A program made the position numbers and the translations under genes. Under the pieces are notes generated by a model. The model was given only the letters and a program-made list of their open reading frames with translations. It was not told the DNA's origin and made no database searches. Below, in pieces: positions 7,432 to 51,895 of a stretch of 64,000 nucleotides of DNA; within the stretch, counting starts at the first letter, position 1; every line of letters begins with the position of its first letter. Source of the DNA: Bradyrhizobium sp. 186 (GTDB lineage Bacteria; Pseudomonadota; Alphaproteobacteria; Rhizobiales; Xanthobacteraceae); NCBI RefSeq assembly GCF_023101685.1, contig NZ_CP082164.1:310001-374000 (forward strand). The letters are read 5' to 3'.

Positions 7432-10221
7432 TCACGCCACCGGCTGAACCGCCTTGTCGCCGGCCATCACATGGGTCAGCGCGCTCTTGATCGCGGCCTG
7501 GCGTGTCGGAGCACTGATCTGGGCGCCGAGGAGGTCGGTGACGTAGAACACGTCGCGGGCGCGCTCGCCGAAGGTCGCGACATGGGCGGACGCAATGTTG
7601 AGGTTGAGCTTCGAGATCGCGGTGGTCAGCTCGTAGAGCAGGCCGGGGCGGTCGAGGCCGGACACCTCGATCACGGTGTAGCGGTCCGACCATTGGTTGT
7701 TGATGGTCACTTCCGGCTCGATCACGAAAGGCCGCGCCTTGCTGCGCACGGTGCGCCGCGCCACCACTTCCGGAAGACGCAGCTTGCCTTCCAGCACGTC
7801 CTCGATCATCTCGCCGATCCGGGTGGCGCGCCTTCCCTCGTCCTCGTCGCGATCGTACTCGCGGGAGATCGATATCGTGTCCAGGGCACGGCCGTCGGTC
7901 GTGGTGTAGATCTGCGCGTCGACGATGTTGGCGCCGGCCGAGGCACAGGCGCCGGCGATGATCGAGAGTAGCCAGGGATGGTCGGCCGCGAAGATCGTGA
8001 GCTCGGTGACGCCACGCACCTCGTCGAAGCCGACATTGATCGCGAGCTTGTGGCCGGCCTGCTCGCTGGAGCGGACGAAGCGGGCGTGGCGGATCTTTCG
8101 CGGCAGCTCGACCTTGAGCCAGTAGGCCGGATAGTGCCGGCCGATATAGGCGTCGAGCTCCTCCTTTGGCCATTCGGCAAAGGCGATGCGGAATTCGGCG
8201 TGGGCGGCCGCCAGACGCTTGCCACGGTCCACTTCCGAGAAGCCGCCGGTCAACACCGGCTCGGTCTCGTAATAAAGCGAGCGCAGCAGCTGCGCCTTCC
8301 AGCCGTTCCATACGCCCGGGCCGACGCCGCGAATGTCGGCGGTGGTCAGGATCGTCAGCAGCTTCATCTGCTCGACGGACTGCACCACGGCGGCGAAATT
8401 CTCGATGGTCTTGCGGTCGGACAGGTCGCGCGACTGTGCGACCGTCGACATGGTCAGATGTTCCTCGATCAGCCACGCCACCAGCTCGGTGTCGGCGGGG
8501 CTGAAGCCGAGCCGCGGACAGAGCCGCCGCGCCACCTTGGCCCCCGCAATCGAATGGTCCTCCAGCCGGCCCTTGGCGATGTCGTGCAGCAGCGTCACGA
8601 TATAGATCACCGGCCGGTGCTCGGGCCGGATCTTGCGCATCAAGTCGCTCGCAAGCGTGAATTCCTCGACGCCGCCGCGCTCGATGTCCTGCAAGAAGCC
8701 GACGCAGCGGATCAGGTGCTCGTCGACGGTGTAGTGATGATACATGTTGAACTGCATCATCGAGACGATCTTGCCGAAGGCGCGGATGAACTGGCCGAGC
8801 ACGCCGGTCTCGTTCATCCTCCGCAGCACGGTCTCGGCATCGTTGGAGGTCAGAATCTCCATGAATAGCCGATTGGCCTCGGGATTTTCGCGAAGCTGCG
8901 CGTTGATCAGGCCGAGCGAGCGCGTCACGTCGCGCATCGCATCCGGGTGGAAGGCGAGGTTGTTCTTCTGCGCCAGGCGGAAGATGCGGATCAGATTGAC
9001 CGGATCGTGCTTGAACACGTCGGGCGCGGCGACGTTGATGCGGTTGTTGTCGACGATGAAGTCGTCGCTGTCGGGCACCCGCCGCTTCACGGCGGTGGGA
9101 CGCAGCCGCGCCATCATCCGGCTCAGCACCGGTGCGGGCTTGGCCTGTTGATCCTCGAGCTTGGCGCAGAGGATGGCGGTGAGATTGCCGACTTCCTTCG
9201 CGACCAGGAAGTAGTGCTTCATGAAGCGCTCGACGTCCTGCATGCCGGGATGCGAGGTGTAGCCGAGCCGGACCGCGATCTCGCGCTGGAGATCGAACGA
9301 CAGGCGCTCCTCAGGCCGCCCCGAATAGAAGTGCAGGTTGCAGCGCACCGACCAGAGGAAATCGGCGCAGCGGCGGAAGCTGCGGTATTCCTGCGCGTCG
9401 AACACGCCGCGCTCGACCAATTCGTCGGTGTCGCGGACGCGGTAGACGTATTTGGCGATCCAGAACAGCGTGTGCAGGTCGCGTAAGGCCCCCTTTCCGT
9501 CCTTGACGTTGGGCTCGACCAGATAGCGCGACTGGCCGCCGCGACGGTGGCGCTCCTCGCGCTCGGCGAGTTTTGCGGTGACGAATTCGGACGCGGTGCC
9601 TTGCACCACTTCCTTGTCGAAGCGCGCGACCAGTTCTTCATACAGCGGCTTGTCGCCGGTGAGGAAGCGCGTCTCCAGGATCGCGGTGCGGATGGTCATG
9701 TCGCCGCGCGCCTGGCGGATCGATTCATCCACCGAACGCGTGGCATGCCCGACCTTCAAGCCCATGTCCCACAGGCAATAGAGAATCGCCTCGGCCACCT
9801 GCTCGCCCCAGGCGGTCTGCTTGTAGGGCAGGATGAAGAGCAGATCGATGTCGGACTCGGGTGCCATCAAGCCGCGGCCATAGCCGCCGGTCGCCACCAC
9901 CGCCATGCGCTCGGCCCCGCTCGGAATCGGCGAGCGGTAGAGATGACGGGTCGCCGCCGAATACAGAATGCGAATGATCTCGTCTTGCACATGGCACAGC
10001 CGCTCGGCGCAGCGCCGGCCGTGACGGTCCTTGAGCAGGATTGCCTGCGCCGCGGCGCGCGCCGCCATCAGTTCGGCCTTGAGCAGTTGCGCAACCGCAG
10101 TGCGGAACGCGTCCTCGCGGCCCTGATGCTTTTCGGCAAGTGCGTCGACCGCGGCGGTGATCCGCGCGGTGTCGAAGCGATCATCCGCCTCTGCCTTGTG
10201 CTCAGTCGCGACGCTGTCCAT
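7432..10221 (-). CDS. glnD: [Protein-PII] uridylyltransferase / uridylyl-removing enzyme
   Basis: The 929-residue central nitrogen sensor. It uridylylates PII proteins when glutamine is low and removes the UMP when glutamine is high. In order: a nucleotidyltransferase domain with ATGGYGRGLMAPESDIDLLF (about 108-128), a helical linker, an HD hydrolase domain with LLHDIAKGRLEDHS (about 540), and two C-terminal ACT domains (about 740 and 850) that bind glutamine. Length matches the rhizobial enzymes and all catalytic motifs are present. It is a single-gene unit, convergent with ogt. Confidence 0.97.
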   Translation of the reverse strand: MDSVATEHKAEADDRFDTARITAAVDALAEKHQGREDAFRTAVAQLLKAELMAARAAAQAILLKDRHGRRCAERLCHVQDEIIRILYSAATRHLYRSPIPSGAERMAVVATGGYGRGLMAPESDIDLLFILPYKQTAWGEQVAEAILYCLWDMGLKVGHATRSVDESIRQARGDMTIRTAILETRFLTGDKPLYEELVARFDKEVVQGTASEFVTAKLAEREERHRRGGQSRYLVEPNVKDGKGALRDLHTLFWIAKYVYRVRDTDELVERGVFDAQEYRSFRRCADFLWSVRCNLHFYSGRPEERLSFDLQREIAVRLGYTSHPGMQDVERFMKHYFLVAKEVGNLTAILCAKLEDQQAKPAPVLSRMMARLRPTAVKRRVPDSDDFIVDNNRINVAAPDVFKHDPVNLIRIFRLAQKNNLAFHPDAMRDVTRSLGLINAQLRENPEANRLFMEILTSNDAETVLRRMNETGVLGQFIRAFGKIVSMMQFNMYHHYTVDEHLIRCVGFLQDIERGGVEEFTLASDLMRKIRPEHRPVIYIVTLLHDIAKGRLEDHSIAGAKVARRLCPRLGFSPADTELVAWLIEEHLTMSTVAQSRDLSDRKTIENFAAVVQSVEQMKLLTILTTADIRGVGPGVWNGWKAQLLRSLYYETEPVLTGGFSEVDRGKRLAAAHAEFRIAFAEWPKEELDAYIGRHYPAYWLKVELPRKIRHARFVRSSEQAGHKLAINVGFDEVRGVTELTIFAADHPWLLSIIAGACASAGANIVDAQIYTTTDGRALDTISISREYDRDEDEGRRATRIGEMIEDVLEGKLRLPEVVARRTVRSKARPFVIEPEVTINNQWSDRYTVIEVSGLDRPGLLYELTTAISKLNLNIASAHVATFGERARDVFYVTDLLGAQISAPTRQAAIKSALTHVMAGDKAVQPVA

Positions 10222-10408
10222 GTCTCACCGGATATAAGAGGGGACAGGCGCTGTCACCCGCCATTCTCTCGCAATAGTCGTTCCATGCTTGGAAAGGCTG
10301 GCTTTGGGCAAAGTTGTTCTCGGCCGACGTGCTTTCGGAACAGGGATTTTCTGGTTGACCTCTAGATATAACTCATTGAAAAACAATGAAGTTTTAGGAG
10401 GGCCGGGC

Positions 10409-11379
10409 ATGACCAAGATGACACGACGCATTCTGTTGGCGGGGGCCGTGGCTCTCGCTGTGACCCCTGCGGCAAGGGCGGCGGATCCGCTCAAGGAGAT
10501 CCGCATCGACTGGGCGACCTACAATCCGGTGTCGCTGGTCCTGAAGCAGAAGGGGCTCCTGGAAAAGGAGTTCGCCAAGGACGGCATCACCATCACCTGG
10601 GTGCAGTCGGCAGGCTCCAACAAGGCGCTCGAATTCCTCAATGCCGGCTCGATCGATTTCGGCTCGACCGCGGGCTCTGCCGCGCTGGTCGCCCGGATCA
10701 ACGGCAACCCGATCCAGTCGGTTTATGTCTATTCCCGCCCCGAATGGACGGCGCTTGTCACCGCCAAAGAGTCCAAGATCGCGAGCGTGGCTGATCTCAA
10801 GGGCAAGCGAGTTGCGGTGACGCGGGCACCGATCCGCACATCTTCCTGGTGCGTGCGCTGCTCGGTGCGGGCCTGACCGAAAAGGACATCACGCCGGTGC
10901 TGCTGCAGCACGCCGACGGCAAGACCGCGCTGATCCGCGGCGACGTCGACGCCTGGGCCGGGCTCGATCCGATGATGGCGCAGGCCGAGGTCGAAGAGGG
11001 CGCAAAACTGTTCTATCGCAAGGCCGACGCCAACACTTGGGGCATCCTCAATGTGCGCGAGCAGTTTCTAAAGGACAATCCGGACATCGTCCGCCGCGTG
11101 CTCGCTGTCTATGAAGACGCGCGAAAATATTCGCTGGCGAATTACGACGACCTGAAGAAGACCTTCATTGCCGTCACGAAGTTGCCGGAGCCGGTCGTCG
11201 ACAAGCAGCTCAAGGGGCGCACCGAGCTTACCCACAGCCGCATCGGCGCGCCGCAGCGCGAGTCGATCCTCGCCGCCGGTCTCGCGCTCCAGCAGGCCGG
11301 TGTGGTCGACGCCAAGGTCGATGTGAAGGCCACGCTCGATGCCCTGATTGACGATCAGGTCCCGCTGCCGACGAATTGA
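10409..11379 (+). pseudogene. SsuA/NitT-type ABC substrate-binding protein gene with a one-base frameshift
   Basis: The start at ATG 10409 has AGGAGG seven bases upstream, and a signal sequence with a Tat-like RR follows (MTRRILLAG to AARAADP). The frame reads as an aliphatic sulfonate/NitT-type periplasmic protein up to GKRVAVTR (about 10825). It then shifts: the next residues become nonsense, while the frame one base over resumes with TDPHIFLVRALL and runs cleanly to 11379. Adding one G to the GGG run at 10824-10826 restores a full-length protein of about 323 residues. The permease and ATPase downstream are intact, so this is either a very recent mutation or a homopolymer error. As written, the importer lacks its binding protein. 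Confidence 0.85.
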
Positions 11380-11388
11380 GGCGGACCC

Positions 11389-11470
11389 GTAGCCCGGATG
11401 GAGCGAAGCGAAATCCGGGATATCTTTGCGCGGCACGGCCCCGGATTGCGATGCGCTCTATCCGGGCTAC
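11389..11470. repeat. Palindromic repeat with GTAGCCCGGAT ends
   Basis: Begins GTAGCCCGGATGGAGCG and ends GCTCTATCCGGGCTAC, with an AAATCCGGG/CCCGGATT inner pair. A second copy of the same family lies at 30127-30214. It follows the stop of the binding-protein gene. Confidence 0.8.
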
Positions 11471-11509
11471 GCAGCTGGAGAGAGGCGCGCCGCCGCCACA
11501 AACACCGCC

Positions 11510-11658
11510 GTCGTCCCGGGGCTCGAAGCGAGCCCGGGACCCATAACCACAGGGAGTGGTTTGACGCGAAGGCGATAACTCCGAGTCCCCGTAATCACTC
11601 CTTCCTGTGGCTATGGGTCCCGGATCTGCGCTCGCTCCGCTCGCTTGTCCGGGACGAC
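11510..11658. repeat. Composite palindromic repeat with GTCGTCCCGG / CCGGGACGAC ends
   Basis: The outer arms GTCGTCCCGGG and TCCGGGACGAC enclose GGGACCCATAACCACAGG, mirrored by CCTGTGGCTATGGGTCCC. The same architecture is found at 23836-23954, 38816-38937 and 57093-57221, with half copies elsewhere. It occupies the gap between the binding-protein gene and the permease gene. Confidence 0.8.
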
Positions 11659-11707
11659 AGCGGAGACTGCCGCACGCCCTTGCATTCCCTGATCAGACGC
11701 GCTTGCT

Positions 11708-12550
11708 ATGGCCATGATCTCTGAAGCGCCAGTCCTGCAACAAACCTCGGAGCAAGCCGAGGTCGCGCCCGCGCCCTCGCGCTATGCGCGGCCGATGCTG
11801 GGACTGCTGCTGCCACTTGCTCTCGCGCTCGGCTGGGAACTCGTGGTCTGGCTTGGCTGGTCCAACGGCCGGTTGGTGCCGCCGCCCTCGCGGGTCTTCG
11901 CCACCATCTTGGAGCTCGCCCGTTCCGGCGAACTGATCCGCCACATCGCCGCGACGCTGTGGCGCGTCGGCCTCGGCTTTGCGTTCGGCGTGGTCGCGGG
12001 CACGCTGCTCGGCGCCATCTCCGGCTATTGGTCGCTCGCGCGCCGTCTGCTCGATCCGACCGTGCAGGCCCTGCGCGCGATCCCGTCGCTCGCCTGGGTG
12101 CCGCTGTTCATCCTCTGGCTCGGCATCTTCGAGACCTCGAAAATTGTGCTGATCGCGGTCGGCGTGTTCTTCCCGGTCTATCTCGGCGTCATGGGCGCGA
12201 TCCTCATCGTTGATCGCAAGATCGTCGAGGTCGGCCGCACCTTTCGTCTTTCCGGACCGGCCATGATCCGCCGCATCCTGCTGCCCGCGGTGCTGCCGGC
12301 CTATGTGGTGTCCTTGCGCGTCGGCCTCGGGCTTGGCTGGATGTTCGTAGTGGCGGCCGAATTGATCGGCGCTTCCGAAGGCCTCGGCTATCTCCTGCTC
12401 GACGGCCAGCAGCTCGGCAAGCCCGCGCAGATCCTGGCTGCGATCGTGATCTTCGCCATTCTCGGCAAGCTCACCGACTGGCTGATCGAGGTCGGGGCGG
12501 CGCCGTTCCTGCGCTGGCAGGACGCTTTCGGGCGCACGAAGGAAGCTTAG
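11708..12550 (+). CDS. ABC transporter permease, SsuC/NitT-TauT type
   Basis: A 280-residue inner-membrane subunit with about six membrane segments, starting in a hydrophobic stretch (residues 35-55). The cytoplasmic coupling loop (SGPAMIRRILLPAVLPAYVVSLR, about 180-202) has the EAA-type layout of BPD_transp_1 permeases. It precedes its ATPase gene by 2 bases and lies downstream of the frameshifted binding protein. The substrate is likely an aliphatic sulfonate, taurine, nitrate-like anion or related compound; the sequence does not decide which. A Pro/Ala/Glu-rich tail of about 30 residues precedes the first helix. Confidence 0.9.
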   Translation: MAMISEAPVLQQTSEQAEVAPAPSRYARPMLGLLLPLALALGWELVVWLGWSNGRLVPPPSRVFATILELARSGELIRHIAATLWRVGLGFAFGVVAGTLLGAISGYWSLARRLLDPTVQALRAIPSLAWVPLFILWLGIFETSKIVLIAVGVFFPVYLGVMGAILIVDRKIVEVGRTFRLSGPAMIRRILLPAVLPAYVVSLRVGLGLGWMFVVAAELIGASEGLGYLLLDGQQLGKPAQILAAIVIFAILGKLTDWLIEVGAAPFLRWQDAFGRTKEA

Positions 12551-44794: not shown

Positions 44795-47662
44795 TCACGC
44801 CACCCGCCGGACCGCGTTGAGGCGCTCGATCGTGTGGCCGACCTCGGCCGCCGGGCACGGCCTGCCGAAATAATACCCTTGCACCGCGGTGCAGCCGCAT
44901 TCGCGTACGAAGTCGAGCTGCTCGATCGTCTCCACGCCCTCCGCAGTGGTCTCGACGCCGAGCACTGAGCCGAGGCTCGCGATGGTGCGGACGATGGCGA
45001 TGCTCTCCGGGCTTTCGCCGAGCGTGCCGACGAAGGAGCGGTCGATCTTGATGCGGTCGAACGGAAACTTGCGCAAATAGCTCAGCGAGGAATACCCGAC
45101 ACCGAAATCGTCGAGGCTGACGCGCACGCCAAGCGAACGGAGCTGATGCAGGATCTCGATTGTCGCCTCGCTGTCGTCGAGCAGTGCCGTCTCGGTGACC
45201 TCGAGCTCGAGCCGCCGCGGCTGCAGACCGGCCTCGGCGAGCGCGCTCGTGACCATCGCCACCAGCCCGCGCGAGCGGAACTGTACTGGGGACAGGTTGA
45301 CCGCGACGGTGAAGTCAGGCCAGGACGCAGCGGTCGCGCAGGCGGTGCGCAGCACCCATTCGCCGATCGGAACGATGAGGCCGGTCTCCTCGGCGATCGG
45401 AATGAACTCGGCCGGCGAGACCATGCCGCGTGACGGATGCTTCCAGCGCAGCAGCGCCTCGAAGCCGGTGAGCTCGGACGTGTCGAGCCGCACCTGCGGC
45501 TGGAACACCAGGTGGAATTCGTTGGCTTCCAGTGCGCCGCGCAGATCGTGCTCCAGCGCGTGCCGGCTGCGTGCATGTTCCTCCATCTCTGGCTCGAACA
45601 GCTGATAGGCGCCGCGGCCTTTGGCCTTGGCTTGGTAGAGCGCGAGATCGGCGCATTTCATCAACTCGTCGGCGTCGAGCCCGTGATCGGGTGCGATCGC
45701 GATGCCGACGGAGACGCCGATATGGATCGACTGGCTTTCCAGCGGCGGCGGACGGCCGATGATCTCGACCAGGCGGCGCGCGAGCCGCTCGGCCGATTGC
45801 GGCTGCGGACCGCGCTGGAGAACGGCGAACTCGTCGCCGCCGAGTCGCGCAACGGTGTCGTGCTCGCCGACATTCTCCTTCAGCCGCGCCGCGACCCAGC
45901 GCAGCAGCCTGTCGCCGGCGGCGTGTCCGAGCCTGTCGTTGACGGTCTTAAAATTGTCGAGGTCGAAGCACAGCACGGCCATGGCGCCGCCGGCGATGGC
46001 GACCTGGTTCAGCCCCTCGCTCATCTTCTCGCGGAACAGCGTGCGGTTGGGCAGATCGGTGAGCGAATCGTGCCGCGCCATATGCGCGACGCGAGCCTGG
46101 GCCTTGTGGCGCTCGGTGACGTCCTCGTAGGTGACGACCCAGCCGCCGTGTTCCATCCGCTTGTGGTTGAGCTTGATGATGCGGCCGTCGCTCAAATGGC
46201 GGTGCAGGGTGTGCTCGCCCTCGCGCAGCCGCTCGACATAGTCGGCATAGAGCTTGACCGCCGTGGTGTTCGGATGAATGCCGAGGGCGCAGCTATGCTC
46301 CATGATCTCCCGCATCGAGACGCCGGGCTTCACGATGTCCGGCGACAGGCCATACATCTCGATGTAGCGGCGGTTGCAGACGATCACGCGCAGAACGGAG
46401 TCGAGCATGCACAGGCCCTGGCCCATGTTGTTCAGCGCCGCGTCGAAGCGACGATATTGCTCGCTCAACTCCTCGACTGCACGCTCGCGCTCGCTGATAT
46501 CCTCGTAGGTGGCGACAAACCCACCGTCGGGCAGCGCGCAGTAGCGCACCGAGATCACGGTGCCGTTCGACATGCTCCGCCGCATCGGCGAGGAATCGCG
46601 GCTCGCGATCCGCGCGCTGGCCACTTCGAGAAGCTGCTGCGGGCTGTACTCCGAGGCGAAGGCGCCGTTCGTCATCGAGCGTTCGATCAGCTCGGAGAGA
46701 TGCGTGCCGGGCCTGGTCTCCTCCGGCGATAGCAGATAGATCTTCCGGTAGGTGGTGTTGCAGACGCGAAGGCGCATTTCGCTGTCGTAGAACGCGAGCC
46801 CGTGCGCCATGTTCTCCAGCGCCGCATCAAGGATGAAGTTCTGCTGCCTCAGGGTCTCTTCGTATTGCAGCCGCTCGGTGACGTCCTCGTGCACGGTCAC
46901 CCAGCCGCCGTCGGGCAGGAAGCGGGACACTGCCTGCACCATCCGCCCATCGTAACGCATCACGAGCAGGGTTTTCGCCTTCCTGGCTCGCACATCGTCC
47001 AGTCTGGTGTCGTGGAACTCGTCACCCGACATGCCCGGCAGGTTTCCGCGCGACATCCAGTGATCGATCACCGTGCAGTGCGGGACGCCCGGCTTCACGA
47101 CGTCGGCGTCGAGGTTGTAGAGGCGCAGGAAGCGCTCGTTGCAGACGACGACGCGGCTGTCGGCATCGTACATGATGAGGCCGTGCGACATGTTGGAAAG
47201 CGCATGCTGGCTGCGCTCGGTCTGGAGGCGCAATTCCACCTCGAGCCGGGCGAGGCGGCTGACGTCGTCGCAGATCGTCATCCAGCCGCCGCCGGGGAGC
47301 GGCTTCAGCTCGAGCGCCATGACGAGGCCGCTTGCAAGCCGCTGTTCGGTGCGGAACGGCTCGCCGGTCGCGATCTGCTTGACGCGCGTGGTGTAGAGCG
47401 CGTCGAGCTCGCTCACCGGGAAGTTGCCGAGCGATGCGCTGTGGGTGAGCACGTCGCGATAGCTCGTGCCGACGTGCACGATCTCGGCCGACATGTTGAA
47501 CAGCGTGAGATAGCGCTGATTGACCAGCACGATCCGGTTGGCGGCGTCGTAGACGCAGACGCCCTGCTCCATGTGGTCGAGCGCAAGCTGGCTCAGCGCG
47601 ACCAGGGCCTCCGGGCCCTGCTCGCGGCGTGCACCAAGCTCGTTGTTACGGGTCGACATCAT
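44795..47662 (-). CDS. Multi-PAS GGDEF-EAL cyclic-di-GMP protein
   Basis: A 955-residue cytoplasmic signalling protein. Four PAS-type domains occupy about residues 20-520 (each with an HxxGVCVYDA- or MxxGL-like start). A canonical GGDEF domain (about 525-695) has ARLGGDEFAVLQ, and an EAL domain (about 705-950) has GFEALLRWKHP and DDFGVGYSS. Both sites look intact. No membrane segment is evident. Start ATG 47660-47662; the second ATG in MMSTRNN is three bases on. It is convergent with the degenerate homologue at 43006-44742. Confidence 0.93.
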   Translation of the reverse strand: MMSTRNNELGARREQGPEALVALSQLALDHMEQGVCVYDAANRIVLVNQRYLTLFNMSAEIVHVGTSYRDVLTHSASLGNFPVSELDALYTTRVKQIATGEPFRTEQRLASGLVMALELKPLPGGGWMTICDDVSRLARLEVELRLQTERSQHALSNMSHGLIMYDADSRVVVCNERFLRLYNLDADVVKPGVPHCTVIDHWMSRGNLPGMSGDEFHDTRLDDVRARKAKTLLVMRYDGRMVQAVSRFLPDGGWVTVHEDVTERLQYEETLRQQNFILDAALENMAHGLAFYDSEMRLRVCNTTYRKIYLLSPEETRPGTHLSELIERSMTNGAFASEYSPQQLLEVASARIASRDSSPMRRSMSNGTVISVRYCALPDGGFVATYEDISERERAVEELSEQYRRFDAALNNMGQGLCMLDSVLRVIVCNRRYIEMYGLSPDIVKPGVSMREIMEHSCALGIHPNTTAVKLYADYVERLREGEHTLHRHLSDGRIIKLNHKRMEHGGWVVTYEDVTERHKAQARVAHMARHDSLTDLPNRTLFREKMSEGLNQVAIAGGAMAVLCFDLDNFKTVNDRLGHAAGDRLLRWVAARLKENVGEHDTVARLGGDEFAVLQRGPQPQSAERLARRLVEIIGRPPPLESQSIHIGVSVGIAIAPDHGLDADELMKCADLALYQAKAKGRGAYQLFEPEMEEHARSRHALEHDLRGALEANEFHLVFQPQVRLDTSELTGFEALLRWKHPSRGMVSPAEFIPIAEETGLIVPIGEWVLRTACATAASWPDFTVAVNLSPVQFRSRGLVAMVTSALAEAGLQPRRLELEVTETALLDDSEATIEILHQLRSLGVRVSLDDFGVGYSSLSYLRKFPFDRIKIDRSFVGTLGESPESIAIVRTIASLGSVLGVETTAEGVETIEQLDFVRECGCTAVQGYYFGRPCPAAEVGHTIERLNAVRRVA

Positions 47663-47877
47663 CGGATCGGGACGGTCTCGGCGGGCAATTGACCTAACGC
47701 AAACGTAATTCAGCTGCCGAGGGTAGCGAAGAGGCGGGAAAATTCCCTTAAGCGCCGTAGTTTACGGAGGGTGACTGACGGTATGGAGTGCGCGTGTATC
47801 TCGGGCGCGCGACTGCGAGGTGTGGGAGCGCGCAATAAATGCCTTCGCCGGGACGACAGCGGGTGTGTGATGCGTCC

Positions 47878-48753
47878 TTAAGGCCCGTACAGCACGAGCT
47901 CGGTATCCGTCAGATCGGCCAGGCGCGGGCGGTGCGGGCCCTTGAAATATTTGCGGCCGCGCCGTTCGGTGTAGACGCCGACGAGGCCGGGGATCGGGCC
48001 GTTGGAATCGACGATCACCGAGATCTTGCCGAGCCGCAGCAGCAGCCGGCCGATGCGGCCGGCGCAGGCGGTGTATTCGGCGGCGCTGCGGCAATAGATC
48101 AGTTGCATCGCGGGCGGGGCGATGAAACCGCGCCGGATGCGTACCGCTTGCAGGATGAAGGGGAAAGTGCCCTGCGGGGTGCGGCAGACCAGGCTGAGGC
48201 AATTGTAGCGCGCGTGCCGCGTCAGGAGCTCGGTCTCGGCTTCGGAGAGACCTTCGATCTGCTTGGTGTGCGGCGAGATCACCTCGATCTTGCTCCAGCG
48301 CGAGGCGCGCGACAGCGCCGGCACCGAGAAGAACAGGCCGCGGCAATAGGGGCGGAAGCCCTGCGTCTCGATGATCGGCCAGGTCCACACAGCAGGGCTG
48401 ATGTTGAGATAGGTCACGTGCTTGTGCCGCTGTGCGATCTTGGTCAGCAGCGGGGCATAGTTGCGGTAGGCCGGCTCGACATACCAGCTCGACAGGTTGC
48501 ACTGGATGGCGGTGTCTTCGCCGTCCTTCCGCGTCGTGTAGATCAGCAGCAGCACCCCGACCGGCGTGCCGTCATCGTCGAGCATGTAGCCGAAACGCGG
48601 ATAGCCTTCCGGTACCGGTCGGAAGGCCTGCCGACGCAGGCCCTGGATCCAGTAGTTGCGCGAGCGGCCGACGAAGCCGCGCGTCAGCAAGTCCGCGATG
48701 GCTTCAACATCGGACTCGGTGATCTCGCGGCATCGGACCTTGGTATGAATCAC
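47878..48753 (-). CDS. GNAT-like protein of the amino acid:carrier protein cluster
   Basis: A 291-residue protein of which only the first half resembles a GNAT acyltransferase (VRCREITESDVEAIADLLTRGF, then VGVLLLIYTTR and SSWYVEPAYRNYAPLL). The second half has no recognised domain. Start GTG 48753 (VIHTKVRCREI) lies 37 bases past the ligase stop; ATG 48810 is possible and would overlap the ligase gene. By position it is the third gene in the flavoprotein-ligase unit. In my reading it would transfer the carrier-bound aminoacyl group to an unknown acceptor. That is inference. Confidence 0.65.
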   Translation of the reverse strand: MIHTKVRCREITESDVEAIADLLTRGFVGRSRNYWIQGLRRQAFRPVPEGYPRFGYMLDDDGTPVGVLLLIYTTRKDGEDTAIQCNLSSWYVEPAYRNYAPLLTKIAQRHKHVTYLNISPAVWTWPIIETQGFRPYCRGLFFSVPALSRASRWSKIEVISPHTKQIEGLSEAETELLTRHARYNCLSLVCRTPQGTFPFILQAVRIRRGFIAPPAMQLIYCRSAAEYTACAGRIGRLLLRLGKISVIVDSNGPIPGLVGVYTERRGRKYFKGPHRPRLADLTDTELVLYGP

Positions 48754-48790
48754 GCTCGTCTTGCCCGTGGAAATGATAGGCCTCGTTCCG

Positions 48791-49771
48791 TTAGCGCCAG
48801 CCTTCGCCATGGGCGTCGGCCGCGACCTGCGGCTGCATGCCCAGGATGTCTCGCACCTTGGCGGGCCAGGCGGAGAGATCGGTGCCATGGGTGTGGAACA
48901 TCGCGACGGCCAGGCGATCCATGCCGAAGGCGACGCAGCCGGTATGGGCCGGTTCACCATTGGCGTCCTGGATGTCCCAGGTCGTGCCGAAATGTTCGCG
49001 GTGATAGTTGAAGCTCATGCAGGCGGTCGGCTGCTCCTCGGAGCGCAGCGGGATCAGCAGCTCGAACTTGAGCTGCTGCTGCTTCTGGCTCACCGCCTTC
49101 ATCTGGCCGACGCGCCCGAAGAAGGGGTCGCTGGCGTAGTCGACGCGGAAACTCAGGCCGAGATCGATCGCGATTGCCTGCGCACGCACCATCCAGCGCT
49201 CGCGGAAATCGGCGACGTCGTCGGGAGTGCCGATGCAGACATATTCCCGCATCCGGAACGATTGCAGCCGGTCAAGATGCTTCGACGGCTCGCGGCGGAA
49301 GCAGTCGGCGGCGACGTCGAAGCGCAAGCCGCCCTTGGGCAGCTGGCCGCGGCTCGCCGCGATCGGGTAGACGGGGTAGCAGGCGGCCGGCGACAGCACG
49401 AGATCGGCCGGCGAGAGCGAGGTGGTCCAGTCGCCGCCGGCATCAAAACGGCTCACCGCGGCGTTGATTTCGCGCTCGGTGCCGTGCAGGCCGCAGACGC
49501 AGCCGAGCAGGTTCGGAAAGCTCTTCAGGTAGCCGGACTTTTCGAGCTGGACGCGGCTCATCACCGGCGGAAAGCGCATCACTTCGGTGCCCGCTTCACG
49601 GTGCCGGGTGATCAGCGCGGCGAGCCGCTCGACTATGCCTTCATAGATCGCGGTGCGGGCGTATACGCCATCCGCGCCCATGCGGTGGAACAGCGTGTCG
49701 GCGAGATGATCGAGCGGATCGACGGCCTGCGGCGCGGTTTCGGGCGAATTGGGGAGAACAGCAATGTTCAT
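48791..49771 (-). CDS. Amino acid:[carrier protein] ligase, class II aaRS-like
   Basis: A 326-residue homologue of a SerRS-type catalytic core that lacks the tRNA-binding arm. It activates a small amino acid with ATP and loads it onto the phosphopantetheine of a carrier protein. The catalytic zinc ligands fall at Cys131 (SPAACYPVY), Glu176 (FRMREYVCI) and Cys279 (AHTGCVAFG). These positions and the length equal what I recall for Bll0957 of B. japonicum. Class II motif 2 (VAADCFRREPSKHLDRLQSF) and motif 3 (GCVAFGMDRLAVAMF) are intact. ATG 49771 has AGGAAG upstream. The flavoprotein gene lies upstream, the acyltransferase downstream; the carrier is divergent at 51447. Confidence 0.9.
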   Translation of the reverse strand: MNIAVLPNSPETAPQAVDPLDHLADTLFHRMGADGVYARTAIYEGIVERLAALITRHREAGTEVMRFPPVMSRVQLEKSGYLKSFPNLLGCVCGLHGTEREINAAVSRFDAGGDWTTSLSPADLVLSPAACYPVYPIAASRGQLPKGGLRFDVAADCFRREPSKHLDRLQSFRMREYVCIGTPDDVADFRERWMVRAQAIAIDLGLSFRVDYASDPFFGRVGQMKAVSQKQQQLKFELLIPLRSEEQPTACMSFNYHREHFGTTWDIQDANGEPAHTGCVAFGMDRLAVAMFHTHGTDLSAWPAKVRDILGMQPQVAADAHGEGWR

Positions 49772-49829
49772 GTTCGACTTCCTGCTATCTGAAATTATTC
49801 TTGTTGGTCGCCAAGGCTGGTTAATCTTG

Positions 49830-49896
49830 GAGGCTCGTCAATCCTGAAGGCACGTCAGTCTCGAAGGCTTGTCAGTCACGAAGGCTTGCCGGCACG
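49830..49896. repeat. 17-bp tandem repeats, about four copies
   Basis: Units GAGGCTCGTCAATCCTG (49830), AAGGCACGTCAGTCTCG (49847), AAGGCTTGTCAGTCACG (49864) and AAGGCTTGCCGGCACG (49881) stand head to tail. The array starts in the gap and covers the last codons of the flavoprotein gene. Confidence 0.7.
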
Positions 49897-51089
49897 CCGC
49901 TCATCAGCGTCGATGTTGCGGCATTGGCCAGAATGCGGTCGTTGTTGATCATGATCGGCGACGACAGCACGTCGCGCAGGTGGCGGCCCATGGTGAACTC
50001 GCCGTCATTGCGATAGCCGGAGAGGCCGGCCGTACGCATCGCATGCATCACGGTCTCGACCGCGAGCTCGGAGGCCTGGACTTTCAGAAGCGTGATCGAC
50101 GACTGGAAGTCGAGCGAGCTCAGCGCGCGCTCATCGTGCTCGGCGCGGGCGAAAGCATCGAGATTGGCCGCAATCAGCGCGCGAAGCTTTGCCAGCGACA
50201 TCTTCGCGGCGGTGAAATGCGCGGCGGCCGGCGGCATCTGCCCGCCGGAGCTGCGGGCCGCCTTACGGACGAAGGCCTGCGCGCGGGTCACGGCCGCAGC
50301 CGCAATGCCGGCCCAGGTCGACGACCAGCATAGATGCGCGAACGGTGTCATCGTCTGCGCATGGATCTTGTCGTAGGACTCAGGGAAGACGCGATCGGCG
50401 GGGCAGTCCACCCTGAGCTCGAACCCGGTCGAGCAGGTGCCGCGCATGCCGAGCGTTTCCCAGCCCAGCGTCCGCTTCAGCGAATAATCGTCCTTGGCAA
50501 GTGCCAGCAGCACCTGGTCGGACGCAGAAGCGTCGGTGGCGCGGCGGGCGATGGTGACGAGGCCGTCGGCCTCGGCGCCGTAGGAGATCACCGTGGCGTC
50601 CCGCACGAGCGAGACGGTATCGCCGGCGTGGTCGACGGCGGCCGCGCTGGCGCGGATATTGCCGCCGTTCTGGCCTTCGGTGGTGGAGGAGGCGAGCAGC
50701 CACTGGTCGCGGGCGACTCGGCGCATCATGGTTTCCATCCACGGAATGCCGTGGCCGTGCCTGATGACGCAGGCGACCTTGGTCTGGTGCATCGCGTAGA
50801 TCATCGCGGTGGAGGCGCAGGCGCGTCCGAGCGCGTAGCAGATGTCGGTGACATCGTGGATCGAGGCACCGAGCCCGCCGAACTCGACGGGGATCATGAC
50901 GCCGAGCAGCTTTTGCTCGCGCGCGGCTTCGAAAGCCTTATGCGGAAAGCGGGCATCGCGATCGACGCCGTCGGCGTCGGCGGCGGCCGCAGTGGCGGTT
51001 CGCGCCGCGCGCTCGACCAAGGAGGGACCCTGTTCGAGGAGGCTCGCCTGCGTTTCGTCGACAGTAAGGATCGCTTCACGCACGTTCAT
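49872..51089 (-). CDS. Acyl-CoA-dehydrogenase-family flavoprotein
   Basis: A 405-residue FAD enzyme with the acyl-CoA dehydrogenase fold: an N-terminal helical domain (about 25-135), a middle beta domain (about 138-245) with GWETLGMRGTCSTGFELR, and a C-terminal helical domain (about 255-400). The usual catalytic Glu is not clearly visible. Its place beside the ligase and carrier genes suggests a carrier-bound aminoacyl thioester as substrate rather than acyl-CoA; flavoproteins of this family oxidise aminoacyl-carrier thioesters in other pathways. That substrate is inference. Start ATG 51087-51089. The stop lies 100 bases before the ligase start, with tandem repeats between. Confidence 0.8.
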   Translation of the reverse strand: MNVREAILTVDETQASLLEQGPSLVERAARTATAAAADADGVDRDARFPHKAFEAAREQKLLGVMIPVEFGGLGASIHDVTDICYALGRACASTAMIYAMHQTKVACVIRHGHGIPWMETMMRRVARDQWLLASSTTEGQNGGNIRASAAAVDHAGDTVSLVRDATVISYGAEADGLVTIARRATDASASDQVLLALAKDDYSLKRTLGWETLGMRGTCSTGFELRVDCPADRVFPESYDKIHAQTMTPFAHLCWSSTWAGIAAAAVTRAQAFVRKAARSSGGQMPPAAAHFTAAKMSLAKLRALIAANLDAFARAEHDERALSSLDFQSSITLLKVQASELAVETVMHAMRTAGLSGYRNDGEFTMGRHLRDVLSSPIMINNDRILANAATSTLMSGVPASLRD

Positions 51090-51446
51090 GCTCGTCCGCC
51101 TCCGGTTCGCCGTTCAGGATCGCCGGCATCACTCGCGATGCCGTGCAGCGATCCTCCGGCCATCTTTGCTTGTGAGGTGAGGCTACGGATTTAATTCAAA
51201 TTCGTCGATGAAATAGAGGGTAAACGAACTGCAATTCCCAATGAACAGTTAAGGTCGGGTTGTTGGCGTCGCCGAAATTCCCGGTGTCGCGTTAGCGATT
51301 TGGAAGAAGCATGAAGTTTAGTCAATCTGAGTCATCGTTTACTAAGAAACGCGAAGTAATGGTGCCGCCCATTGCGGGATCGGCTGGCCGTGCCCATCGT
51401 AGCTGGCAATCCGGTCCGACCTCGATAGACAGATGGGAATTTGCCG
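51090..51446. promoter_or_regulatory. Divergent promoter region between flavoprotein and carrier genes
   Basis: This 357-base gap is AT-richer than its surroundings, especially 51187-51350 (ATTTAATTCAAATTCGTCGA, and a CGTTT/AAACG inverted repeat near 51337). It holds no gene and must contain promoters for both directions. No consensus hexamers are confident by eye. Confidence 0.4.
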
Positions 51447-51719
51447 ATGCAGGCCTTCGATACCGACGTGCGCAATCGCATCATCAAGCTGGTGAAGGGC
51501 ATTCTCGAACAGAATTCGCTCGCGGCTGATGTCGCGCCGGCGGCGAAGCTCGTCGACGCCGGCCTGACCTCGATGGACATGGTCAATCTGATGTTGGGCG
51601 TGGAAGCCGAGTTCGATTTCACCATCCCGCAGTCCGAGATCACGCCTGAGAATTTCCAGTCGGTCGAGACGCTGGAGCGCATGGTGGCGAGCCAGTTGCA
51701 GCCGGCAACGGCGGCTTAA
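51447..51719 (+). CDS. Discrete acyl/aminoacyl carrier protein
   Basis: A 90-residue small acidic carrier. The phosphopantetheine site is the Ser of DAGLTSMDMVNLMLG (about residue 42), where DSL is replaced by LTS-M. Four-helix carrier-domain layout. Start ATG 51447 after GGGAA; a TTG two codons earlier is less likely. It is divergent from the flavoprotein-ligase unit and is its likely substrate. Length is slightly more than FAS-type ACP and the sequence is clearly not that of the housekeeping ACP. Confidence 0.88.
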   Translation: MQAFDTDVRNRIIKLVKGILEQNSLAADVAPAAKLVDAGLTSMDMVNLMLGVEAEFDFTIPQSEITPENFQSVETLERMVASQLQPATAA

Positions 51720-51743
51720 TTAGACGCACGATTTCCTCCCCGG

Positions 51744-51769
51744 GTCGTCCTGGCGAAAGCCAGGACGAC
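51744..51769. terminator. GNRA-loop hairpin after the carrier gene
   Basis: GTCGTCCTGGC pairs perfectly with GCCAGGACGAC around a GAAA loop. It is a half copy of the dispersed GACGAC repeat and lies just beyond the carrier protein stop. Confidence 0.6.
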
Positions 51770-51895
51770 ACCGAATGTTTGGCGCGGCGTGTCCTTCTCC
51801 TGACGACACCCAACCCACGACCCCCGTTCCAAAACCCCCGCAAAACTGGCATAGCTTCTCCACGGGATCGCGCGGCGCGAACGGGTGGAGCAGGC

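What the first reader, a model, noticed from the sequence alone, without database searches (positions are those of the whole stretch)
47878..51719. Carrier-protein-based amino acid pathway of unknown product
A discrete carrier protein, an amino acid:[carrier protein] ligase with intact zinc ligands (Cys131, Glu176, Cys279), an acyl-CoA-dehydrogenase-like flavoprotein and a GNAT-like protein sit together. From established work I recall that ligases of this type load glycine or alanine onto carriers, but the fate of the loaded amino acid is, as far as I know, undescribed. The gene set suggests charge, oxidise, transfer. The product could be a modified amino acid or a tailored small molecule. This is the most likely undescribed system in the window.
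Basis: partly seen in the sequence, partly recalled or inferred. Interest (0 to 1): 0.78.

Follow-up and report, generated by a model that had tools for sequence, protein, structure and literature searches.

The report
Carrier-bound amino acid oxidation-and-transfer operon
Four neighbouring genes in a soil bacterium appear to load an amino acid onto a small carrier protein, oxidise it there and hand it to another molecule; the loading step is known from close relatives, the end product is not.

The parts
51447..51719 (+). aminoacyl carrier protein, 90 aa, attachment Ser42 (motif GLTSMDM)
   Evidence: match to 'Aminoacyl carrier protein 1' (4h2s chain C) over all 90 residues, 165.9 bits; PF00550 above cut-off; Ser in 27 of 27 carriers aligned
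48791..49771 (-). amino acid:[carrier protein] ligase, 326 aa, class II synthetase core
   Evidence: match to Bll0957 structures (3mey and others) over residues 1-326, 715.5 bits; NF005479 485 bits, cut-off 357; Cys131, Glu176, Cys279 in 41 of 41
49872..51089 (-). acyl-CoA-dehydrogenase-fold flavoprotein, 405 aa, lacking both canonical catalytic Glu positions; probable oxygenase of the carrier-bound amino acid
   Evidence: PF02771/PF00441; residues; same 64 of 297 genomes as the ligase
47878..48753 (-). GNAT-fold protein, 291 aa, probable acyltransferase taking the aminoacyl group off the carrier
51090..51446 (.). intergenic region between the divergent flavoprotein/ligase/GNAT genes (-) and the carrier gene (+)
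   Evidence: sequence; no sigma-70-like site in 47700-51800; no repeats in 51080-51450

Best explanation
A discrete aminoacyl-thioester pathway. Known for the orthologous Bradyrhizobium proteins (recalled from Mocibob 2010/2013, as cited in PMC9437257; not tested here): the ligase activates a small amino acid, glycine or alanine, and loads it on the holo-carrier. Inferred: the ACAD-fold flavoprotein oxidises the amino acid while it sits on the carrier, most likely by oxygenating its amino group (N-hydroxy, possibly oxime or nitroso level), as proposed for AlnG/AlaD in alanosine biosynthesis. Inferred: the GNAT takes the modified aminoacyl group from the carrier and joins it to an amine (or hydroxyl) acceptor, in the slot that a CcbD-like cysteine aminoacyltransferase (DUF1839) fills in most other species of the order that have the ligase. 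There the genes tend to lie among polysaccharide genes, so the acceptor is plausibly an amino sugar; in Bradyrhizobium the acceptor is unknown.
Against: No activity was tested. AlnG's N-hydroxylation is itself described as hypothesised. The best PDB profile hits of the flavoprotein are acyl-CoA dehydrogenases; DnmZ is fourth. No glycan gene was recognised beside the Bradyrhizobium locus. In the four other families with the GNAT type it lies 2.5 kb or more from the ligase, or on another contig (G042, G147, G196, G218), often with a second carrier, AMP ligase and SDR, so it may serve that carrier. The 64 genomes are related, so counts are not independent; one search scored at most 6 candidates per genome. 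Two plasmids carry type-B genes behind nif genes, and bll0957/bll0958 rise in a phaR mutant at 0.5% O2: low-oxygen settings suit an oxygenase poorly.
Confidence: 0.5

Rival explanations
1. The flavoprotein is a dehydrogenase after all, using another base, and turns glycyl- or alanyl-carrier into an imino- or 2-oxoacyl-carrier that is transferred or hydrolysed.
For: ACAD domains PF02771/PF00441; prolyl-carrier dehydrogenases of the same fold appear among the hits (NF045652; 4irn); the best PDB hit 7p98 is named an acyl-CoA dehydrogenase.
Against: Both canonical Glu positions lost in 23 of 23 rows and in 5 of 5 further relatives; an RxxFG stretch (recalled FAD motif) is absent from the window protein and found in only 1 of 23 rows.
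Confidence: 0.25
2. The GNAT belongs to a separate second-carrier module and is only an operon neighbour in Bradyrhizobium; the amino acid on the first carrier goes elsewhere or is released.
For: GNAT relatives sit with a second carrier, AMP ligase and SDR, without the ligase in the stretch, in L161, L163, L164 and L170, and with second carrier and AMP ligases in L165; genome G188 has the GNAT without the ligase.
Against: 16 of 16 against 1 of 48 exchange with DUF1839; GNAT 38-121 bases behind the ligase in 80 of 80 loci by tblastn ends; no second carrier seen in the four Bradyrhizobium loci mapped (L138, L146, L157, L158).
Confidence: 0.2
3. The set feeds a larger non-ribosomal peptide system as a loading step.
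For: Original suggestion of the ligase's discoverers as cited in PMC2922099; relatives of carrier plus flavoprotein lie beside NRPS genes on Streptomyces and Rhodococcus plasmids.
Against: No ORF over 955 aa between 44 and 56 kb; the genome shows 8 PF00550 places at E <= 0.001, two of them in one 2157-aa frame about 7.9 Mb away by coordinate.
Confidence: 0.05

Closest known systems
Amino acid:[carrier protein] ligase Bll0957 and aminoacyl carrier protein 1 (PDB 3mey, 4h2s)
   Different: The published work I could see cited stops at loading; the role was still called unknown in a 2022 review (PMC9437257, passages)
Carrier, redox enzyme, ligase, uncharacterised ORF and glycosidase system predicted by Iyer and Aravind 2010 (PMC2922099, note added in proof, passages)
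   Same: Same charging and oxidising core; same idea of modification and amide transfer
   Different: The window genome has no DUF1839 match and a GNAT instead; the carrier gene is divergent; no glycosidase noticed next to it
Lincosamide condensing enzymes CcbD/LmbD; CtaG; AziU2-U3
   Same: Fold of DUF1839, the enzyme that the GNAT appears to replace; CcbD moves a carrier-bound amino acid to an amine
   Different: Cysteine acyltransferases; the window's protein has a different fold
GNATs SbzC/SbzI (altemicidin, SB-203208) and FeeM
   Same: GNAT family, acyl donor on a carrier protein (PMC6331615, passages)
   Different: SbzC and SbzI donors are charged by adenylation enzymes; no sequence kinship shown (profile A3 finds no PDB chain at E <= 1)
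AlnG/AlaD of L-alanosine biosynthesis; nitrososynthases such as DnmZ
   Same: ACAD-like protein used, or proposed to be used, to oxidise an amine
   Different: Other substrates; the AlnG sequence was not compared here, only an alanosine-like Streptomyces cluster

Membership tests
amino acid:[carrier protein] ligase (NF005479) | score above curated cut-off | tested here: met
   485 bits, cut-off 357
amino acid:[carrier protein] ligase (NF005479) | zinc ligands Cys131, Glu176, Cys279 | tested here: met
   41 of 41 ligases aligned
amino acid:[carrier protein] ligase (NF005479) | loads an amino acid on the carrier, not on tRNA | not testable with these tools
   inferred from orthology to Bll0957
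partner carrier PRK07081 (NF005480) | score above curated cut-off | tested here: not met
   52.3 bits, cut-off 72; yet orthologous to the carrier in 4h2s
phosphopantetheine carrier (PF00550) | cut-off and attachment Ser | tested here: met
   26.5 bits, cut-off 20.8; Ser42 in 27 of 27 aligned
acyl-CoA dehydrogenase (dehydrogenating enzyme) | ACAD domains | tested here: met
   PF02771 and PF00441 above cut-off
acyl-CoA dehydrogenase (dehydrogenating enzyme) | catalytic Glu at the C-terminal (YEG) or helix-G position (positions recalled) | tested here: not met
   Ile381 in 23 of 23; Ala/Ser/Thr251 in 23 of 23
ACAD-fold N-oxygenase (AlnG, DnmZ type) | oxygenates an amine | not testable with these tools
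   inferred from the lost Glu, DnmZ similarity and the carrier plus SbnA/SbnB-like context of a relative
GNAT | Pfam acetyltransferase cut-off | tested here: not met
   PF13527 12 bits, cut-off 25
GNAT | GNAT fold | tested here: met
GNAT using a carrier-bound donor | acyl donor on a carrier protein | tested here: inconclusive
   context only: carrier in the same cluster in at least 9 of 15 regions
DUF1839 system (Iyer and Aravind) | DUF1839 beside the ligase | tested here: not met
   no PF08893 match in G000

The most novel reading that the evidence does not exclude
Amino acid:[carrier protein] ligases head a family of modular decoration systems in which one charging-and-N-oxidising core (carrier, ACAD-fold N-oxygenase, ligase) is fitted with exchangeable transferases (GNAT in Bradyrhizobium and Methylocystis, CcbD-like DUF1839 in other rhizobia, Azospirillum and Mycetohabitans) and, with more distant ligases without the flavoprotein, an MBOAT or single GNAT, putting an N-oxidised glycine or alanine residue on amines of surface sugars or small molecules.
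Probability: 0.3. Interest if true: 0.75.

Novelty: new variant of a known kind. Interest (0 to 1): 0.55.

Why it matters
What becomes of the amino acid loaded by these synthetase-like ligases has been open since they were described in 2010; a 2022 review still calls the role unknown (PMC9437257, passages). The genomes give a concrete, testable answer: a strictly linked oxidising enzyme and one of two transferase types. If true, it links aminoacyl-tRNA-synthetase evolution to the tailoring of sugars or metabolites, perhaps in plant symbionts: two rhizobial plasmids carry the DUF1839 version directly behind nif genes.

Tried and rejected
Own genome: one ligase place at E <= 0.001, so no second ligase of this family was seen there. 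The promoter scan found no site, the terminator scan one against 2.9 expected by shuffling, the repeat scan none. The A3 GNAT profile found no PDB sequence at E <= 1. That the genes are merely syntenic was rejected by the 64 of 64 and the 16 of 16 against 1 of 48 patterns. A paper giving the product was sought in ten searches and not found; the library lacks most subscription journals, and Mocibob 2010 and the alanosine paper PMC7176540 are not held. My first translation of the GNAT, was out of frame; it was redone, and the GNAT rows are void. Gene calls are my own codon-usage calls; they missed DUF1839 in L120 and L125, where one search finds it.

Results that weigh against the tidy picture: 13 of 48 DUF1839 genomes also have a GNAT relative at E <= 1e-14 or so (12 of them weak, 5e-15 to 3e-22), and G255 has both DUF1839 and a GNAT at 2e-52. 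The Pfam neighbour counts rest on random samples (120 of 143 and 120 of 217 eligible proteins from 17 loci and 17 controls; three further control stretches were fetched and not used). For R. johnstonii 3841 the gene table lists carrier and flavoprotein but no ligase; that table is incomplete by design.

Full report
WHAT IS THERE. The window lies in a genome of 10.77 Mb in two contigs; the nearest relatives of the locus are Bradyrhizobium. Four genes occupy 47878-51719: the carrier on the + strand and, on the other strand, flavoprotein, ligase and GNAT in that order. The ligase aligns over all 326 residues with Bll0957 (3mey; 715.5 bits) and the carrier over its 90 residues with the aminoacyl carrier crystallised with that ligase (4h2s chain C; 165.9 bits). 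The loading step is thus known by orthology; I did not test it. [quoted passage not shown]). In B. diazoefficiens bll0957 and bll0958, the ligase and flavoprotein genes, are both listed as up at transcript and protein level in a phaR mutant at 0.5% O2 (PMC10888616, one table passage).

CONSERVATION. Of 80 fetched loci (the best 80 of 148 places found with the flavoprotein), 80 hold all four genes in the same order and relative strands. In 297 genomes drawn from the order, the ligase exceeds its curated cut-off in 64; 6 further genomes match below it. A profile of the flavoprotein clade at E <= 1e-70 hits the same 64, with hit ends -4 to 107 bases from the ligase's; that search scored at most 6 candidates per genome, so a stray copy elsewhere could be missed. 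DUF1839 is found in 48, all among the 64, with hit starts 932-1390 bp from the ligase's. The remaining 16 (six Bradyrhizobium, ten others) all have a GNAT homologue at E <= 1e-30; so do 1 of the 48 and 1 of the 233 genomes without a ligase over cut-off. Twelve more of the 48 have weak GNAT relatives (5e-15 to 3e-22). Kinship inflates such counts, but families f16, f28 and f42 contain both types. In a ligase tree of 41 rows the DUF1839 type is one side of a branch (99/100); the GNAT type lies beside it and is one side of a branch in 56% of bootstrap trees. Outside Bradyrhizobium the GNAT is 2.5 kb or more from the ligase (L129, L130, L131, L134), 19 kb away in G272, or on another contig (G042, G147, G196, G218), so there the link is looser.

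THE OXIDISING STEP. The flavoprotein has ACAD domains, but the residue in line with the C-terminal Glu (YEG motif) is Ile in 23 of 23 rows, and that in line with the helix-G Glu is Ser, Ala or Thr; the motif positions are recalled. Five further relatives agree (Ile or Val; Ser, Ala or Thr), and His252, Trp255 and Trp259 are invariant in all 28. In the PDB its profile ranks acyl-CoA dehydrogenases first and the nitrososynthase-type DnmZ fourth. On a Streptomyces anulatus plasmid a relative (37% identity over 389 columns) lies behind a carrier gene and before SbnA (TIGR03945 above cut-off), an SbnB-like frame that I judged by eye, and an adenylation domain. That resembles alanosine biosynthesis, where an ACAD-like protein, AlnG/AlaD, is hypothesised to N-hydroxylate diaminopropionate (PMC7347517 and PMC11705231, passages). 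I therefore favour N-oxygenation of the carrier-bound amino acid over dehydrogenation.

CONTEXT. Type-B (DUF1839) clusters usually continue with a GH2-like gene (19 of 20 type-B loci) and tend to lie among polysaccharide genes: of 120 proteins sampled from 143 eligible neighbours in 17 loci, 12 match Glycos_transf_1, and Wzz, Wzy_C, Bac_transf and WecG 2-3 each; of 120 sampled from 217 in control stretches of the same 17 genomes each of these has at most one member. I chose the control positions at round coordinates. I recognised no such gene beside the Bradyrhizobium locus. More distant ligases, below the family cut-off and without the flavoprotein in 10 of 10 loci, sit with an MBOAT (PF03062 in L154, its cluster relatives in L155 and L156; a carrier in L154 and L156) or with polysaccharide deacetylase, carrier and GNAT (L150).

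PRIOR WORK. Iyer and Aravind (PMC2922099, note added in proof; [quoted passage not shown] My results agree with that prediction and add structural support. What I did not find in print is the GNAT version, the exchange of transferases, the CcbD-like fold of DUF1839 and the loss of the dehydrogenase bases; I did not search for each of these separately.

VERDICT. It is a GNAT-type variant of a predicted but, as far as I found, untested aminoacyl-decoration system. Loading is known by orthology; oxidation and transfer are inferred; product and acceptor are unknown.

Noticed in passing
L194 (Rhizobium gallicum pRgalIE4872c) and L198 (R. acidisoli pRapFH23a), 8633-11953: The carrier-flavoprotein-ligase-DUF1839 genes lie directly behind nifHDKENX-fdxB on conjugative plasmids of bean-nodule strains: 2 of the 7 rhizobial plasmid regions looked at (59 plasmid records match in all). 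In R. gallicum an ACC deaminase gene follows, in R. acidisoli an annotated exopolysaccharide repressor gene precedes.
   Followed up: partly
L154, L155, L156 around the distant ligase: Distant ligases beside an MBOAT acyltransferase (PF03062 in L154, cluster relatives in L155 and L156) and, in L154 and L156, a carrier: an arrangement like the Dlt D-alanylation system with a synthetase-like ligase in place of DltA.
   Followed up: partly
L150:6772-10293: Polysaccharide deacetylase, distant ligase, carrier and single GNAT in a row, as if a sugar amine were freed and then aminoacylated.
   Followed up: no
L129, L131, L160, L164, L170: GNAT relatives cluster with a thiamine-diphosphate enzyme and, in varying combinations, a class IV aminotransferase, second carrier, AMP ligase and SDR; the GNAT of L131 is identical to one named Methylocystis. 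This looks like a larger unexplained pathway.
   Followed up: partly
L197:8645-11678 (R. johnstonii 3841 pRL10): Carrier and flavoprotein are listed, but no ligase or DUF1839 follows in the gene table; the locus may be decayed, or the table incomplete.
   Followed up: no
L201:5556-8382 (Rhizobium sp. NLR16a p3): Elongation factor P, EpmA and a lysine-2,3-aminomutase-like gene stand directly before the carrier operon: two synthetase-like ligase systems side by side.
   Followed up: no
window 44795-47662 (-): 955-aa protein downstream of the GNAT with GGDEF- and EAL-like stretches (recalled motifs, not scanned); a relative follows the GNAT in 4 of 4 Bradyrhizobium loci mapped (cluster c5).
   Followed up: no
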